From the IMG/VR virus record IMGVR_UViG_3300000116_000158, positions 1 to 27,884 of that record: 27,884 bases of DNA. One strand, written 5' to 3'. Under the pieces are notes generated by a model. The model was not told the DNA's origin. It made no database searches and worked only from the letters and a program-made list of their open reading frames with translations. Each line of letters opens with the position of its first letter. Within the stretch, counting starts at the first letter, position 1. A program made the position numbers and the translations under genes. This document shows, one piece after another, positions 4,407 through 18,800 of the stretch. Source of the DNA: a virus.

Positions 4407-4580
4407 ATGAAAAAGAAATGTTCTTTTACAATAGATGAAGATTTAATGAAATGGTTTAGAGGTTATGTGAGTGAAGAAAGCACCACAATGTCAGCGGTGC
4501 TTAATCAACACATTTTGAAATTAAAAAGAGAGGTTAAGAAACCTAAGAATTTACTTTCTAGTCAAAAGAAACATTACTAA
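4407..4580 (+). CDS. Small ribbon-helix-helix (Arc/CopG-type) DNA-binding protein
   Basis: This 57-aa protein is the only convincing plus-strand gene in the window. It begins MKKKCSFTIDEDLMKWFRGY, a short basic strand alternating polar and hydrophobic residues, followed by two helices (about 10-20 and 26-40, the second containing SAVLNQHIL), then a basic tail. This is the layout of ribbon-helix-helix repressors, which bind operators as dimers. An in-frame ATG lies 15 nt upstream (4392), but GGAG at 4394-4397 sits 9 nt before the ATG at 4407, so I prefer the shorter start. The gene diverges from the fibre gene and converges on the recombination nuclease gene, overlapping its 3' end by 23 nt. 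A phage transcription regulator is inferred; the target is unknown. Fold confidence is moderate because the protein is very short. Confidence 0.65.
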   Translation: MKKKCSFTIDEDLMKWFRGYVSEESTTMSAVLNQHILKLKREVKKPKNLLSSQKKHY

Positions 4581-7500
4581 AGTTATTCTCTTTCTTAATT
4601 TCTAATAAGGTATCCACAGCATCTCTCATAGAATCTATATGAGAAACAATCATAGTGAATTGGAATTGAGATTTTAAATACTGAAATAGATTGTAAACAG
4701 AATTTAGATTATCGGAATCCATCGTTCCCCACCCTTCATCAATAGCTAAGAAGTTAGCTGCTGGTAGATTAGATACATTTATTAATCCCACACGCATTGC
4801 TAGGGATGAAATAAATCGTTCCATACCGCTAGATAACTCAAGAGGCCAGACATTATCATCATCGTATACTATGTAACAATTAATATTCTTGCCATCCATT
4901 TCTAATATCATAGAGAAATCTACAATCTGTGAAAGTATATCATTTATAGCACCCTCAATAGTTGGAAGTGCTTTGGATATTAATTCGTATGGAACACCAT
5001 CACGTTTAATAGCATCCATATAGTATTGATAAGCAGCATGTTTATCTTCTAACTCTTCAACTTTGTCTATACTAGCCATTATGTTTTCACGATTGGTTTC
5101 TAATACTTTTATCTCACCATTTACTATTTGAAGTTTTTTATCCATATCTTCTATGAACTGTTCTATAACATCAGATTGTTGTTGCGCATCTTCGATATCT
5201 TTAATTAACTTTCTATTAAATATGATATCCATTTCTTGTTCATGATATATATTAATCTTATCTTCAATTATTGCTAATTGACTTATTAGATTTTTTCTTC
5301 TTTCAATAGTTAGTTTTTCTTCGCTATCCAATTTACTTACATTAGCAGTAAGTAAACTAAGGCTCTGTATGGATTCATCTAATTGAGCTTTATGCGATTC
5401 TATATGAGATAATCCATTTATTATAGTATCTAAACTATCAGATTTTTTGACAAACTCATTAGCTAATAACTTATCATCATTTAATTTCTTTTTAGTTTCC
5501 ATAGCATCTATTGTAAATGGATTCTTCATACAAAAATCACAATCAGGATCATATTCTAAATCACCAAGCTTTTCAATCTTATCTAACTTATTCTTAACTT
5601 CTATTTTAAGCTTATCAATTTCGATTTGATTAGTTGACTTTTCAACACTATATTGTTCCAATTGGGCAAACTTCTTATCCACTTCATTTTCAATAAAGAT
5701 ATTTATCTTCTCATTTAGTTCAGTTTCTTCTACTGAAAGTTGTTTGGATAAGGTTGCTATTTCACCTACTCTCTCATCTACAGCATTTAATGAGTTAGTT
5801 AACGTAACCTTTCTTTCCTCCAACTCACTTATGCTATCAGCAGTTTCATCTACTTTTTTAAGCTGCTTTGTTAAGCCTATGATTTCTTTATCACATTCTT
5901 TCTTTTCTGTTAGCAGAGCTTTTCTTTGAACATCTAACTTTTTAAATTTCTTCTTATCTTCACTAAGACTATCTTTTATATCTGCTAACTGAACATCATA
6001 GTTAGTTTTCTTAAAAGATTTCAAAAGAGAACTTACATCATGTATCTCATCAGCAGCCAAAGTATAAAGTTGGTCAAATACACCAATCCCCATAAATTGC
6101 GCAAGCAAGTCCTTTCTTTCTTTCTGTGTCTTATCAATAAAAACAGTTGAGTTAGTTTGAAGAGAAAGTGCTGTCATAATAAAGTCATCATAAGTTCCAA
6201 TAACCTTACGAATATTGACATCGGTAGTTCTTCTCTGATCACCATTTAAAGATACCTTTTCTCCATCGTCAGCAAATGTATAAAAATCAACATCTACCTT
6301 TACGTGACCAGCTCTACCCTTCTTACCTTTTCTTTCGATGACATACTCAGTTCCTTGAACCTCTATCGTAGCTTTACAACTAAATCTATCCTTTTTATTA
6401 TTAAGAACATTTATAGCTTTATATGCTCGAGATGAAGTGTCGAATAAACAGAATGAGAGAGCATCCAACAAAGATGATTTGCCACTAGCGTTCGGAGCAA
6501 ATATACCGACTATCCCACTAAGCTTAGTAAAGTCAACAACATTATCTTCTCCATAAGAAAACATATTATCAAACTCAAACTTCTTAACCTTCCAAGTTAC
6601 CCCTCTGTTAATATTATCTTCCGGCAATCTATTATTGAGTTCTTCATTTATTTTCTTAATATCTATAAGAGTTGCTTCATCTACAAAATGATTTGTCTTT
6701 AGATACTCTTCTATCAATCCATACTGATAGCCTGTATCCATTACGTTACCGACAGCTATTCTTTGTCCTCTAACCTTTTCAATAGAACCGAATGAGTCCG
6801 TTTTTGTTACAGATACTTCTTTTACATTATACTTACTATGAATTATGCTCATAGCCTTTTTAAGTTGAGATGGAGTTGTGTCTGAAACCCTTACTCTTAA
6901 ACGAGCTTTGCTTGGCATATCAGGACAATCTGGAAACTCACCATCTTTAATATCTAATGTATAGTAACCATAATCATTTATAACTTCTATATATTCAGAA
7001 GTTCTCTTTGGAACATCCCATAGTAAATAACCATGCGACAATCCTTCACCGTGATTCTGCTGAACTAATGAGCCACAATAAGATATGGTTTCTTCTTTAT
7101 TAAGATGCTGTCTCTTATGAATATCACCAAGTAGTCCTAAATCATAACCATCAAACTTTGCAATCTTAACATCCGATGGAAGAAAGAATCCTAAATCTGT
7201 TTCAGACTTATCGACTGTTCCGTGAAATAAAACTATCTTTGTTTCGCCTTCAAAGTCTTTAGCCTCTATATAGTCATCTTCTTTTTCCCACACATCCCAA
7301 ACAACAAATTTAACATCAGCGCATTTATATACACCACTATCTTTTAGGTAATGGAGATTAGGATGTTTTAAGTTATTTACAATCGGAGACAACACATCCA
7401 TACGAGAACGATTATTTAGGTTACAATCGTGATTACCTGCAATAATTATCGTAGGACATATATCTGCTAGATTTTTAAATAAGCGAGATAACTGATCGAC

Positions 7501-7713
7501 CAGTTCAGGCGACATCTCAGTTTTTGAATGAGCTATATCACCGCCGATATAAGCTACAGCATTGTCTTTATGTTTTTTTACTTCTTCGTAAGTTCTTTCA
7601 AACACTTCTTCATATTCTACGTGTCGCTTTAGATTTCTGATTTGAATATCAGAAATATGATGTATGTGTTTTAGTTTACGAAAAGGCACTTTTACAACAT
7701 TTTCTTTAATCAA
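4558..7713 (-). CDS. Fused Mre11-Rad50-type recombination nuclease (gp47-gp46 / SbcD-SbcC fusion)
   Basis: This 1051-aa protein joins both subunits of the phage DNA-end-processing complex. Residues ~15-230 form a calcineurin-like nuclease: D22-x-Q24 (motif I), GD59, GNH95D, FH164G and GDIH199. A linker domain follows to ~375. Residues ~375-1051 are a Rad50/SbcC SMC-like ATPase: Walker A (APNASGKSS, K412), a long coiled coil (~560-900) broken by a zinc-hook CDFC (C725, C728), an ABC signature (LSSGME, 960-965), Walker B (FLAIDE, D992/E993) and switch H1025. In T4 the equivalents are separate gp47 and gp46, which resect ends for recombination-dependent replication. Motif I normally reads D-x-H; here a Gln replaces the metal-binding His. 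The start overlaps the stop of the 72-aa gene by 4 nt, implying coupled translation. Function is confident; nuclease activity with Q24 is uncertain. Confidence 0.93.
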   Translation of the reverse strand: MIKENVVKVPFRKLKHIHHISDIQIRNLKRHVEYEEVFERTYEEVKKHKDNAVAYIGGDIAHSKTEMSPELVDQLSRLFKNLADICPTIIIAGNHDCNLNNRSRMDVLSPIVNNLKHPNLHYLKDSGVYKCADVKFVVWDVWEKEDDYIEAKDFEGETKIVLFHGTVDKSETDLGFFLPSDVKIAKFDGYDLGLLGDIHKRQHLNKEETISYCGSLVQQNHGEGLSHGYLLWDVPKRTSEYIEVINDYGYYTLDIKDGEFPDCPDMPSKARLRVRVSDTTPSQLKKAMSIIHSKYNVKEVSVTKTDSFGSIEKVRGQRIAVGNVMDTGYQYGLIEEYLKTNHFVDEATLIDIKKINEELNNRLPEDNINRGVTWKVKKFEFDNMFSYGEDNVVDFTKLSGIVGIFAPNASGKSSLLDALSFCLFDTSSRAYKAINVLNNKKDRFSCKATIEVQGTEYVIERKGKKGRAGHVKVDVDFYTFADDGEKVSLNGDQRRTTDVNIRKVIGTYDDFIMTALSLQTNSTVFIDKTQKERKDLLAQFMGIGVFDQLYTLAADEIHDVSSLLKSFKKTNYDVQLADIKDSLSEDKKKFKKLDVQRKALLTEKKECDKEIIGLTKQLKKVDETADSISELEERKVTLTNSLNAVDERVGEIATLSKQLSVEETELNEKINIFIENEVDKKFAQLEQYSVEKSTNQIEIDKLKIEVKNKLDKIEKLGDLEYDPDCDFCMKNPFTIDAMETKKKLNDDKLLANEFVKKSDSLDTIINGLSHIESHKAQLDESIQSLSLLTANVSKLDSEEKLTIERRKNLISQLAIIEDKINIYHEQEMDIIFNRKLIKDIEDAQQQSDVIEQFIEDMDKKLQIVNGEIKVLETNRENIMASIDKVEELEDKHAAYQYYMDAIKRDGVPYELISKALPTIEGAINDILSQIVDFSMILEMDGKNINCYIVYDDDNVWPLELSSGMERFISSLAMRVGLINVSNLPAANFLAIDEGWGTMDSDNLNSVYNLFQYLKSQFQFTMIVSHIDSMRDAVDTLLEIKKENNFSNVSFD

Positions 7714-7928
7714 GTATTATCCTTTAAGAATTTCTTCACTTTGTTTATTTGTTTATTCGGAACAATGAAATCCCAAGCCGTTTCTTCATCCAATCTACCA
7801 GTTTCATAATATACAGTAGAGTATACCAAACCAAAGCTACTAGTAAGTTTTTTACTGATTCTAGCATCATCGACATGAACTTTCCACTCGTCATCATTAA
7901 ATTTCCAAATATTTTCTTTGTTTACCAT
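7710..7928 (-). CDS. Small conserved-looking protein of unknown function between primase and nuclease
   Basis: This 72-aa soluble protein begins MVNKENIWKFNDDEWKVHVD and ends with a Lys-rich helix. It is rich in aromatic and acidic residues and has no membrane segment, cysteine pair or motif I recognise. Its start lies inside the last 32 nt of the primase gene, with GAGG about 11 nt upstream. Its stop overlaps the start of the Mre11-Rad50 gene by 4 nt. This double overlap in a replication/recombination cassette suggests it is real and co-translated, perhaps as an accessory factor of either neighbour. I do not recognise a family. Confidence 0.65.
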   Translation of the reverse strand: MVNKENIWKFNDDEWKVHVDDARISKKLTSSFGLVYSTVYYETGRLDEETAWDFIVPNKQINKVKKFLKDNT

Positions 7929-8838
7929 CTAATCTCATCCTCATTAAATCAGAAAATGAAGTCTCTTCTGATTTTTTAATAAGAGTAGTTACTTTCTCAA
8001 ATCCCATATCAGAAGGATCTTCTTCTTTTAGTCTTACAAAATAGACATTGATACCATTCTTCATTAACTTATCAGTTAATTTTATTGCGTCTTTAATCGC
8101 GTCATTGTCTAATAATATATATATAGTTCTAACCTGTTTTTCATATATTTTTTTCATTAATTTTTTAGGTATTGTTTTACCAAATAATGGAATGGCATTT
8201 CTTTTTATAGCCATCGCATCAAAAACACCTTCACATAACACAACCGGCTCATCCCAATTAATAAATAAATCAAAGCCGATTACATCTTTAGAGATTGGTG
8301 GATTCTTATATTTCATTCCGCCGCTGTAGATATCCCTTCCAACAAAATAATTAATATTGCCTTCGGAATCATACGATGGCACTATGATACGATTGGCGTA
8401 TAAACCCTCAGAACAATACCCTACATTGTATCTTATAATATCAGCCATACCCATACCCCTCTTGGCTATATAACTCAAAGCATGCCGTTTAATAATGCTG
8501 TCCCCGCCATTCCAAAGTGGATGAAATTCTTTTGGTAAATGTAATGTTTTTCTCTTGACTTTTGAGTTAAATGATGATAGTGATTTTGTCTCTCCCACAA
8601 TATCTTTTAGCTCATCATATTGCTCTTTATTAGCATTTAGCTTTCTAAATAACTGAAATAATTTATGACCACCTTGATTGGATATCCAACAATGCCATTT
8701 TTGTGTCTGTATGTTTATTTGAAGTTTAGGTTTATGATGAGATGTAAAAGGAGACCAATACATATATTCATTGGCTTTCTTTAGTTGTCTGCCTCTATTT
8801 CCTATAACTCTATTCAGTAGATTTACTATATCACTCAT
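7897..8838 (-). CDS. DnaG-type DNA primase with degenerate zinc-binding domain (gp61-like)
   Basis: This 313-aa protein is a phage primase that would make RNA primers for lagging-strand synthesis. Residues ~1-60 correspond to the CHC2 zinc-binding domain: SPFTSHHKPKLQIN and WHCWISNQGG align by eye with the usual CPF(C/H)...HCxxC pattern. However, only C50 remains; the other three ligand positions are S29, T32 and S53. The TOPRIM catalytic core follows: RIIVPSYDSEGN (~150-161), the acidic motif CEGVFDAMAIK (E203-G204) and LLDND (D244, D246) for metal binding. It is shorter than bacterial DnaG and lacks an obvious helicase-binding domain. It overlaps the PD-(D/E)XK nuclease gene upstream by 8 nt and the 72-aa gene downstream by 32 nt. 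No phage helicase gene lies in this window. Confidence 0.88.
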   Translation of the reverse strand: MSDIVNLLNRVIGNRGRQLKKANEYMYWSPFTSHHKPKLQINIQTQKWHCWISNQGGHKLFQLFRKLNANKEQYDELKDIVGETKSLSSFNSKVKRKTLHLPKEFHPLWNGGDSIIKRHALSYIAKRGMGMADIIRYNVGYCSEGLYANRIIVPSYDSEGNINYFVGRDIYSGGMKYKNPPISKDVIGFDLFINWDEPVVLCEGVFDAMAIKRNAIPLFGKTIPKKLMKKIYEKQVRTIYILLDNDAIKDAIKLTDKLMKNGINVYFVRLKEEDPSDMGFEKVTTLIKKSEETSFSDLMRMRLDGKQRKYLEI

Positions 8839-9166
8839 TGATTAATTCTATAAATTTCTCTATGTTAATAACTGCATAAGTTTTAGTTCTGTTTCTTTTA
8901 AATATCAGAACAGGATCGTAATCACCACTATTTTCTTCTGCTTGTTCCAATGATTTCCATATATTTAAAGCTTCTTGATTCTTACATTCAAATGAATAAG
9001 GGATTAGTCTACGAGCCGCTGGGGATAATTTAATATCCTCTCCAGATTCGCCCATTATAGCAGATTTAATATCATCAGGCTCTAACTGATTAAATGTTTC
9101 TAACAAAAGATCTCTTACATTATTTTGAAGTCTCTTGCCTTTATTCTTAGCGCTTCTTGATTTCAT
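8831..9166 (-). CDS. PD-(D/E)XK nuclease, probable Holliday-junction/branched-DNA resolvase
   Basis: This 111-aa protein has a basic N-terminus (NKGKRLQNNVRDLL, a helix carrying positive charge) followed by GESGEDIKLS (D44) and FECKNQE (E60-x-K62). This spacing is that of the PD-(D/E)XK nuclease fold used by Hjc-type resolvases. The SFECKNQE...IWKSLEQAE...VLIFKRNRTKTYAV arrangement fits small phage nucleases of that fold. It is the first gene of the primase and Mre11-Rad50 group, preceded by 175 nt of non-coding DNA containing tandem repeats, and overlaps the primase start by 8 nt. A resolvase role parallel to T4 endonuclease VII (different fold) is inferred from context. It could instead be another repair or restriction-like nuclease. 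Confidence 0.68.
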   Translation of the reverse strand: MKSRSAKNKGKRLQNNVRDLLLETFNQLEPDDIKSAIMGESGEDIKLSPAARRLIPYSFECKNQEALNIWKSLEQAEENSGDYDPVLIFKRNRTKTYAVINIEKFIELINE

Positions 9167-9341
9167 AAGTTATTACTTTATACTTGTTATACTTGCTACT
9201 TGTTATACTTGTTACTTGTTATACTTGTTACTTGTTAATAGTTAATTACAAATTTAAAAAACAAGGCATAGTAATTTAATTAAAAAACTATTCAGAATTT
9301 TTTAAAGGAATTGTATGTTAACATTATTAATATATATAAGA
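9167..9341. other. Intergenic region between zincin and nuclease genes, with tandem repeats
   Basis: This 175-nt AT-rich gap contains a 16-bp tandem repeat (9181-9238) next to the nuclease gene. The remainder (9239-9341) is A/T-tract-rich, with no coding frame of note and no GC-rich hairpin. TATAAC hexamers recur inside the repeats on the minus strand, and a weak TTGTTT/TATTAA pair with an 18-nt spacer lies just upstream of them. I do not call a promoter from these alone. Confidence 0.6.
9181..9238. repeat. 16-bp tandem direct repeats, iteron-like
   Basis: The plus strand has TACTTGTTATACTTGC at 9181-9196 and TACTTGTTATACTTGT at 9197-9212 and 9213-9228, then a partial unit TACTTGTTAA (9229-9238). 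Each unit carries two copies of the heptamer ACAAGTA on the minus strand, at alternating centre-to-centre distances of 9 and 7 nt. There are about seven heptamers in all, one as GCAAGTA. The array ends 14 nt before the nuclease ATG (9166). Iterated protein-binding sites are a natural reading, serving either as an operator for the replication cassette or as part of an origin. There are no unique spacers, so it is not a CRISPR array. Confidence 0.85.
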
Positions 9342-15800: not shown

Positions 15801-18800
15801 GCTACATAACCTTCAATCTGACTTAATTTATATTTAAAATTATTTATCCTTTTTGATACTGAGCTGAAATTTATAAAGTTTCTAAAATTACCATAATCTA
15901 CATTTATCTCTACACTATCCATACTTTGACTTAAAAATTCATCTCTTAATAAACCAGATACAGTGCTATCCTCACTTAAAATTTTAGTTTGAGACGTGTA
16001 ATCAGTTGTTCTTCTTTGTATAGGACTTTCAGCATTCATTAAATCAGGCGATTTTAAAACCACATCTCCAATTTCAGTATCAACAAAATCCACAATCTCA
16101 ATATTTTCTTCAACTACATCAGCCATTTCTTTTACAACAATTACTTCATCTAATCTTTCAATATCAGTTGGTAATGGCTCGTATAATTTATATACAACTG
16201 AATATGGATAGGGCATTGTTACAAAATCTTTTTTAAAATTAGTAGTTAAAAACATCCTATTTCCAAATTTTATATAGGTTCTCATATCATACGGATTATA
16301 TACAAGATAAGAAACTGAAAAGTTAGGAAAGTTTACAGGATTGCTATCATCCTCATAATCCGTAACATTTTCATTTGTTTCAATTAATTCTCTGCCAGCA
16401 TTTTTCCAATGCTTATCAACCATTATCGCTGATCCCTCTCCTTGAATTCCAGTTATAGTAGCTTCATAGTCTGCGTATATCGGTTGTCGCGTCTGCTGTT
16501 GATTTAATGTAAAGTCTATAAATAAATTATCAACCCACGTTATTCCATATGAATTATCTGCTGTCAGCCCTTTGCTTGTATCCCAAGTATTATCACCTCT
16601 TACCTCTAGAAAAAAGTCTGCTGTCAAAAGCCAATCAGTTGGAACATCTACATCAAGTTCTAAAGTGCTCCAACCACCAGCATTTAATGTAAATGCTTCT
16701 ACTCCAACCTTTTCATAAATATATGAAATAGCGGCGTCTTGTGAGTTCCAAGTAGCTGCTTGTCCATCCCATACCCATTGTTCTGCTGGACTTAAAGTTC
16801 CATCCTTAGTCGGATTTAAATCATAACTAAATTCACTACTCCCATCATCATATAATGCAAATTGATTATAATTATCAGCACCTGGATTTCTACTACCAAA
16901 TATTATTTCTTCACCCTCAGTTCCCTTAACACCAGCATTGTAAAATACATCCTGTAAAGACAATGTTTTATCAACACCATCTTTTGTATCATTTTTTGAA
17001 AAATATACTTGATCTCCTACTATACCAATATATTTTGAACTAAATCCTGAATTCTTAGCAAATGCAACTTCATACTCTGCTGGAATATCTGAAGAAAATC
17101 CTTCTGCAAAAGGTTTTGGATCTTGAGAAAAGAAACTATCTTCATCAGATGCAGCCTCATAGTAATCTCCATCTCCATCATCCATTCTGTAGTATAATCC
17201 GGTGCCAGATATTGTAAAGTAATGTATAAAATTGCTATCTTTTTTAAACCAGGTTTCAAACTTACCATCACCTTCATTTAATCTATCATTGAATCCTTCG
17301 TCAAGATCTATCCAAGAAACTACGCCCTTATTTCCTTTGACATCTACTCCATCAAAATTGTCATCACCCTTTTTTGCAATAAACATTCTGTTTTGATCTT
17401 CAGCACCAGTTCCATTACTATAAAATATTATATACCGACTATTCCAAACACCATTACGGTTCGGGTCCCTAACTCTAGAAACACTCTGTATAAATCCATA
17501 TCTAAAAATGTCATCGAATAAAGAAACTGTAAACGCTTGTCCATCGACTACTTGAGTTATACTTTCATTCCTAACTACAGGAAAGTAATCTTCAAATTTA
17601 TGTAATACTAATTTATTTGAATTTACTGTAAATTCAGGCTCCTTAACTTCCCAAATTAAATCATCTTTAAATAATATTGCGCCATCTCCAACTGTTGTTC
17701 CTGTTTGCCAACCTAAATTTTGACCTTGATTATTTACTCGTTGATATTTAGGCTGACCAGCATCTTCTGTCTGATACGGATGACCATTAACAACGTTCTC
17801 TCCAGAATACTGAACACTGCTGACAGTCCCATCAGGCGGACTAGGACTATTTGCTGAGCCTTTCGTTACCCATTGTGCACCTGACCATTCCCATTCTCCA
17901 TCTTCACTCAACGTTCCCTTTTTCCAATATGGATCTTTTGCAATATTTGGAATCCACACCCATCTTTGAGGAATGATAGATGCTCCTGTGTTGACTCTTG
18001 GTGTTATAATTCCAATTGACCAAGCTCCTTCTCCACCAAAATCTGATGTAGTTTGACCTACTTCTCCGATGAAGGCTGTTACGCCAAAATGTGTTATGAG
18101 CTCTTCTTGTGTCGATGGGGGTTTATTTTCTATATTTGATGCATTAGATTCGTTATTTTCTAAATAACCTTCAGGTATATTTATCGGCTTTGGCTCAGCG
18201 GGCGGAGGAGCAAATGGATTGAAATATCCATTAGGTGGTGAGATTGGCTCAGGTTCAATAAGCCTTTCGGTAGGATATTTAAAATCAATAGCGACACCCT
18301 TTCCAGCAACACTACTCTTTATATCTAACCTAATATTGATTGTATCACCCGCAGCCGCTCCAAAGTTAATTAATGGTGGCATAGTTTGACCAATCATCAA
18401 AAGTCTATGACCACTCGATCCATCCCAAGCTTCAAAGTCTTGATATAAATTATTTTGATCTATAAATTTTATACAATTGCCACCGGAATTTCCTTCTCCG
18501 CTAACAACTTTTGCATGATAACCAATAGCACTGGTTCCAGCATGAGGCTCACCATAGTTGAAGTATCCGCTTGTCCAATCAACTAATTTTATAGCATCGT
18601 TATGTAAACTACCATCCCACCCAGCACTTATTACTGCAGGTGCGCCTGTAGTTGTATCTATTTCTACTTCTTCTAATTCAGCATTCTTTATTATATTTAA
18701 ATCTGTGCGAACTTGTTGAGTTACATATCCGGTTAAGTAAGCATTAGGTAACTTAATAGTTCCACCTATCATATTTTCTGTAAATAGAAACCCACCTTCC

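What the first reader, a model, noticed from the sequence alone, without database searches (positions are those of the whole stretch)
4558..7713. Single-chain Mre11-Rad50 (gp47-gp46) fusion
Nuclease motifs (D22, D59, N94-H95, H164, H199) and a complete Rad50-type ATPase (K412, zinc hook C725/C728, signature 960-965, D992/E993, H1025) lie in one uninterrupted 1051-codon frame. In T4 and most bacteria the two are separate genes. A covalent fusion fixes subunit ratio and says how the C-terminus of the nuclease is placed relative to the ATPase head.
Basis: partly seen in the sequence, partly recalled or inferred. Interest (0 to 1): 0.6.

Follow-up and report, generated by a model that had tools for sequence, protein, structure and literature searches.

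The report
Phage Mre11–Rad50 nuclease in one protein
This T4-like aquatic phage makes the two halves of a DNA-end-processing machine, the Mre11 nuclease and the Rad50 ATPase, as one protein; the fusion is real and common in uncultured aquatic phages, but such fusions have been described since 2011.

Summary
Window 7713→4558, on the MINUS strand, is one open 1051-codon frame: Mre11-type nuclease and capping domain, a predicted helix-loop-helix, a ~12-residue linker, then a complete Rad50-type ATPase with coiled coil and CxxC hook. It is not an assembly artefact: about 158 other contigs carry the same uninterrupted fused frame (24–96% identity), under strong purifying selection across the junction, usually with a primase gene directly upstream. 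These phages have T4-type capsids nearest to Microcystis phage Mel-JY01, Flavobacterium immuto and Rhodothermus RM378 ("Far-T4"). T4, cyanophages and pelagiphages keep separate genes.

The fusion is a known kind. Yoshida, Claverie and Ogata (2011, PMC3175470) described Mre11/Rad50 fusions (Mimivirus R555 and others) and inferred that abundant aquatic homologues belong to phages beside primase and endonuclease genes. The window shares R555's active-site changes (GDxxH, GDxH), and giant-virus fusions are its best fold matches. So: new member of a known kind.

One point went unseen: the motif-I metal-ligand histidine is glutamine (Q24) in the window and every relative at 52% identity or more, and histidine in the rest: one clade-specific change at a catalytic metal site. 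Likely function, inferred: recombination-end processing like T4 gp46/47.

The parts
4558..7713 (-). Mre11-Rad50 single-chain fusion gene, 1051 codons, TTG start
6979..7713 (-). Mre11/SbcD-type metallophosphoesterase domain, residues 1-245
   Evidence: Pfam Metallophos 16-200; PDB SbcD/Mre11 Z about 23
7642..7650 (-). motif I D22-I-Q24: Q (CAA) replaces the canonical metal-ligand His
7528..7542 (-). motif II G58-D59-I-A-H62
7426..7437 (-). motif III G93-N94-H95-D96
7222..7224 (-). motif IV H164
7117..7128 (-). motif V G196-D197-I-H199: D replaces the first His of GHxH
6799..6978 (-). Mre11 capping domain, residues about 246-305
   Evidence: AlphaFold model; PDB alignment runs to residue 305
6634..6735 (-). 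predicted helix-loop-helix (Rad50-binding type), residues 327-360
   Evidence: AlphaFold secondary structure H327-341, H346-360
6598..6633 (-). linker between nuclease and ATPase, residues 361-372
6079..6597 (-). Rad50 ATPase N-lobe, residues 373-545
6472..6498 (-). Walker A, residues 406-414 APNASGKSS (G411, K412 invariant)
5008..6078 (-). antiparallel coiled coil, residues 546-902
5530..5541 (-). zinc-hook motif C725-D-F-C728; both Cys invariant in 162 rows
4819..4836 (-). ABC signature, residues 960-965 LSSGME
4735..4752 (-). Walker B, residues 988-993 FLAIDE
4639..4641 (-). switch histidine H1025
7710..7928 (-). 72-aa ORF between primase and fusion; its TGA overlaps the TTG start
   Evidence: read from the sequence
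7897..8838 (-). DnaG-type primase (CHC2 and Toprim); same type of gene directly upstream of the fusion in 127 of 133 loci
8831..9166 (-). PDDEXK_15 endonuclease, near the fusion in the window's clade

Best explanation
The gene encodes a Mre11-Rad50 (SbcDC, gp47-gp46) fusion of the type first described as Mimivirus R555, in a Far-T4-like phage. Shown here: domains, motifs, open frame, conservation, synteny and predicted fold. Inferred: two chains pair through their Mre11 domains and their ATP-bound Rad50 heads to give the usual M2R2 assembly, with the helix-loop-helix seated on the base of the same chain's coiled coil and the 12-residue linker reaching the Rad50 N-terminus. ATP-driven opening and closing of the heads admits DNA ends to the nuclease, producing or trimming 3' single-stranded ends for recombination-dependent replication and host DNA breakdown, as with gp46/47 in T4. 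Covalent linkage fixes a 1:1 ratio, and the position beside the primase gene suggests co-expression with replication genes.
For: Profiles for both halves. AlphaFold model, mean pLDDT 78, with capping domain, HLH, linker and Rad50 head in order. PDB matches to E. coli SbcCD and to Thermotoga, Pyrococcus and Methanocaldococcus Mre11/Rad50. About 158 other contigs with the same open fused frame; D59, N94, H95, H164, H199, K412, C725, C728, D992, E993 and H1025 invariant in all 162 rows, and D22 in all but one row that is truncated there. dN/dS 0.01-0.11 in all segments. In 14 long contigs and Mel-JY01 the fusion is the only strong SbcC-like match; a few weak coiled-coil-range hits remain. T4-type gp23 in 11 of these 15. 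Primase directly upstream in 127/133. A single well-supported fused group against separate-gene phages and E. coli.
Against: No biochemical data. Q24 and D197 alter the nuclease metal site, so activity and metal preference are not assured. The model is a monomer and pTM is 0.49, so domain placement is uncertain. Immutovirus and RM378, capsid relatives, show no SbcC-like match, so the function is dispensable, or replaced, in some relatives.
Confidence: 0.85

Rival explanations
1. The fusion is an artefact: a frameshift or missed stop joins two genes in this assembly.
For: None found; the window is a metagenome fragment without read data.
Against: About 158 other contigs from many separate metagenomes, one cultured-phage record and MAG contigs hold the same open frame; dN/dS in the junction is 0.02-0.04.
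Confidence: 0.01
2. The gene also yields a free Rad50 subunit from an internal start, so the ratio is not fixed at 1:1.
For: ATG at codon 384 in 158 of 162 rows.
Against: Only 1 of those ATGs has a Shine-Dalgarno-like sequence upstream, no other internal start is conserved, and starting at 384 would drop the first Rad50 strand, 373-382.
Confidence: 0.05
3. In the window's clade the nuclease has lost its first metal (H to Q at motif I) and the protein acts mainly as an ATP-driven DNA tether or clamp, or needs a different metal.
For: Q24 in all rows at 52% identity or more, H24 in the rest, a supported clade; in LpxH of the same superfamily the H10N mutant loses Mn1 binding (PMC5016852).
Against: All other catalytic residues are conserved and the nuclease domain has dN/dS 0.04-0.05; Gln can be a metal ligand (own knowledge); no activity data exist.
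Confidence: 0.2

Closest known systems
Mre11/Rad50 fusion proteins, Mimivirus R555 type (Yoshida et al. 2011, PMC3175470)
   Same: Same domain order; same substitutions GDxxH and GDxH (D for Pfu H206); linker of similar length; aquatic, phage-associated homologues beside primase and endonuclease genes were predicted there. BFVD top matches are giant-virus fusions.
   Different: Carried by a T4-like phage of bacteria; 1051 rather than 1351 aa; motif-I His is Gln in this clade.
T4 gp47/gp46 and cyanophage/pelagiphage homologues
   Same: Same two domains, T4-type phages.
   Different: Two separate genes, GHxH motif V in those aligned, phylogenetically apart.
E. coli SbcD/SbcC
   Same: Fold of both halves.
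   Different: Separate proteins; SbcC alone is as long as the whole fusion (1048 aa); canonical metal ligands.
Microcystis phage Mel-JY01 WWT39521.1 and 484-kb phage LR756508
   Same: 39-40% identical fusions; Mel-JY01 one uninterrupted ORF; T4-type gp23 51-53% identical to that of a window-clade relative.
   Different: His at motif I; in LR756508 the gene is split by a homing-endonuclease-like ORF.

Membership tests
Mre11/SbcD nuclease | calcineurin-like phosphoesterase fold with capping domain | tested here: met
   Pfam Metallophos 1.6e-7; PDB Z 23.6 over 15-305
Mre11/SbcD nuclease | seven canonical metal ligands (D,H / D / N / H / H,H) | tested here: not met
   five of seven kept; H to Q24 and H to D197. 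Claimed as a divergent Mre11-type domain, not as a canonical SbcD; TIGR00619 matches below its cut-off
Mre11/SbcD nuclease | Mn-dependent nuclease activity | not testable with these tools
   needs purified protein
Rad50/SbcC ATPase | Walker A, Q-loop, signature, Walker B, His switch in a bipartite ABC head split by a coiled coil | tested here: met
Rad50/SbcC ATPase | CxxC zinc hook at the coiled-coil apex | tested here: met
   C725 and C728 invariant in 162 rows, placed at the turn between the long helices
Mre11/Rad50 fusion, R555 type | both domains in one frame, Mre11 first, with linker | tested here: met
Mre11/Rad50 fusion, R555 type | substitutions GDxxH and GDxH reported for R555 | tested here: met
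   H62 and D197 against PMC3175470
Mre11/Rad50 fusion, R555 type | common descent with R555 | tested here: inconclusive
   giant-virus fusions are the top BFVD matches, but R555-type sequences were not in the tree
Far-T4 phages | gp23 branches with Far-T4/RM378 rather than T4/cyano-T4 | tested here: inconclusive
   gp23 is outside the window; gp23 of contigs with 81-82% identical fusions groups with Mel-JY01, immuto and RM378, away from T4/Syn33/Mosig, but RM378 is a long branch and no Lake Pavin reference sequences were compared
T4 gp46/gp47 | two separate genes | tested here: not met
   one frame here; separate in T4, Syn33, Mosig

The most novel reading that the evidence does not exclude
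In the window's clade the fused Mre11 has remodelled its first metal site (Q24 for His) and, while under strong selection, works with one tightly bound metal, with another metal, or mainly as a structural clamp: a change of chemistry within a fused Mre11-Rad50.
Probability: 0.2. Interest if true: 0.5.

Novelty: new member of a known kind. Interest (0 to 1): 0.33.

Why it matters
It gives complete sequences, gene context and a likely phage group for the abundant aquatic Mre11/Rad50 fusions that in 2011 were known mostly from fragments, and suggests that in Far-T4-like phages the fusion is the normal form of gp46/47. A single-chain version is a convenient subject for structure and mechanism, and a natural His-to-Gln series at a catalytic metal ligand can be tested directly.

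Tried and rejected
Assembly artefact: rejected by about 158 other contigs. Internal translation start: no conserved start with a Shine-Dalgarno sequence. Presence in cellular genomes: a pattern scan of 84,980 species genomes gave only 7 contigs, all MAG records and thus probably binned phage. Rfam on the window and L002 found nothing at gathering scores; a permissive scan of the insert in L002 gave only chance-level matches. A blast query for the small upstream ORF was cut in the wrong frame, so its lack of hits means nothing. An alignment call failed on a stop in one locus and was redone without it. Giant-virus R555 sequences could not be fetched for the tree. Bacillus phage 0305phi8-36 was not retrieved. 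A dimer prediction was not possible. Literature searches found no later description of this phage fusion in the held library, which does not hold most subscription papers.

Full report
The frame. Window 7713 to 4558 on the minus strand is one open frame of 1051 codons with a TTG start, an AAAGGA ribosome-binding-like sequence just upstream and a TTGA overlap with a 72-aa ORF. The window itself is a 27,884-base virus record whose other genes include T4-type baseplate parts (gp25-like, gp6/J-like), a primase and a PDDEXK_15 nuclease.

Domains. Profiles place a calcineurin-like phosphoesterase at residues 16-200 and Rad50/SMC-type ATPase segments from 376 to 1044. The best PHROG is the SbcC-like family, 285-1049. 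NCBIfam sbcc and sbcd match below their cut-offs, i.e. as divergent relatives. The AlphaFold model (24 sequences, mean pLDDT 78, pTM 0.49) shows nuclease, capping sheet, helices 327-341 and 346-360 (helix-loop-helix), a 12-residue linker, Rad50 N-lobe from 373, a coiled coil with the CxxC hook at its turn, and the C-lobe. PDB matches: E. coli SbcC head Z 26.7; SbcD and Mre11 from several species Z 21-24.

It is not an artefact. In 162 aligned rows (window included; three contigs were fetched twice) the frame is open and spans the whole fusion; shorter hits are cut by contig ends except L002 and L004. dN/dS (NG86) against close relatives is 0.02-0.04 in the HLH/linker segment where dS could be estimated, 0.04-0.05 in the nuclease, 0.01-0.06 in the ATPase lobes and 0.05-0.11 in the coil; in pairs with dS above 1 it is rough. 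No internal start with a Shine-Dalgarno sequence is conserved.

Context. A primase of the same type lies directly upstream in 127 of 133 loci with enough flank, often overlapping the fusion frame by a few bases; in the window's clade a small ORF sits between them. Among 14 long contigs and Mel-JY01, each has one strong SbcC-like match, the fusion; other metallophosphoesterases in some are 220-278 aa and stand alone. Eleven of 15 carry T4-type gp23. By gp23 the nearest named phages to a window-clade contig are LR756508 (53%), Mel-JY01 (51%), Flavobacterium immuto (49%) and RM378 (34.5%), with cyanophages, pelagiphages and T4 much further. T4, Syn33 and Mosig have an SbcC-like gene whose open frame (578-692 aa) does not include the nuclease; LR756511 has separate frames of 683 and 348 aa; immuto and RM378 show no SbcC-like match. 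Far-T4 phages are known as common, mostly uncultured aquatic phages (PMC4360716, PMC7198788). The assignment to Far-T4 is an inference through relatives, as the window has no gp23.

Phylogeny. With separate genes joined head to tail, 24 fused rows form one side of a branch against seven separate-gene rows (100/99), including the distant 735-kb phage (L003) and Tenacibaculum pT24. Several long branches meet and no giant-virus or cellular fusions were included, so this does not contradict the 2011 conclusion of repeated fusion.

The metal site. Sequence alignment to solved Mre11 chains places Q24 at the His of motif I DxH and D197 at the first His of GHxH. D197 is invariant in all 162 rows, and with H62 matches what was reported for R555 (PMC3175470). 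Q24 is in 56 rows, all at 52% identity or more to the window; H24 is in 105, all at 50% or less; in the tree the Q rows form one clade (100/100) with L079 (H) as sister. The distant pT24 protein also has Q there. In the same superfamily the motif-I His binds Mn1, and H10N in LpxH loses that metal (PMC5016852). Whether Q24 binds metal is unknown.

What it does. Shown: a complete, conserved fusion in T4-type phages, with no strong second SbcC in the long contigs. Inferred from gp46/47 and SbcCD: DNA-end processing and tethering for recombination-dependent replication. A 12-residue linker fits the 9-12 residues that Yoshida et al. estimated from the Thermotoga complex for joining the Mre11 C-terminus to Rad50.

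Novelty. Fused Mre11/Rad50 proteins, their abundance in aquatic viromes and their likely phage origin beside primases and endonucleases were published in 2011. Giant-virus fusions are the best matches in the viral structure library. This is a new member of a known kind, with wider sampling, a probable phage group and a clade-specific metal-ligand change as additions.

Noticed in passing
window 7642-7650: Motif-I metal ligand His is Gln in the window's clade only (56 of 162 rows).
   Followed up: partly
L002 (LR756508.1) 4959-9184: The fused gene of this 484-kb phage is split just after GDIHKRQ by a 305-aa ORF with a TnsA-like endonuclease domain, apparently a homing-endonuclease insertion beside the nuclease active site; no Rfam intron found.
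   Followed up: partly
L004 (Tenacibaculum phage pT24) 3995-7927: 1310-aa 'DNA repair' protein with N-terminal Metallophos; matches the window model along its length in BFVD and also has Q at motif I, so probably a divergent fusion.
   Followed up: partly
L003 (LR756501.1, 735-kb phage) 4998-8606: 1202-aa fused Mre11-Rad50, 24-27% identical to the window.
   Followed up: partly
L191 (NC_055915, phage immuto) and L192 (NC_004735, phage RM378), whole records: Capsid relatives of the fusion-bearing phages show no SbcC-like match, suggesting loss or replacement.
   Followed up: partly
window 7710-7928: 72-aa ORF between primase and fusion; the same spacing (about 180-190 nt) is seen in most close relatives and is absent in more distant ones.
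   Followed up: no
window 18184-18268: ARAGORN reports a tRNA-??? with a four-base anticodon on the strand opposite the 2233-aa ORF; probably a false positive.
   Followed up: no
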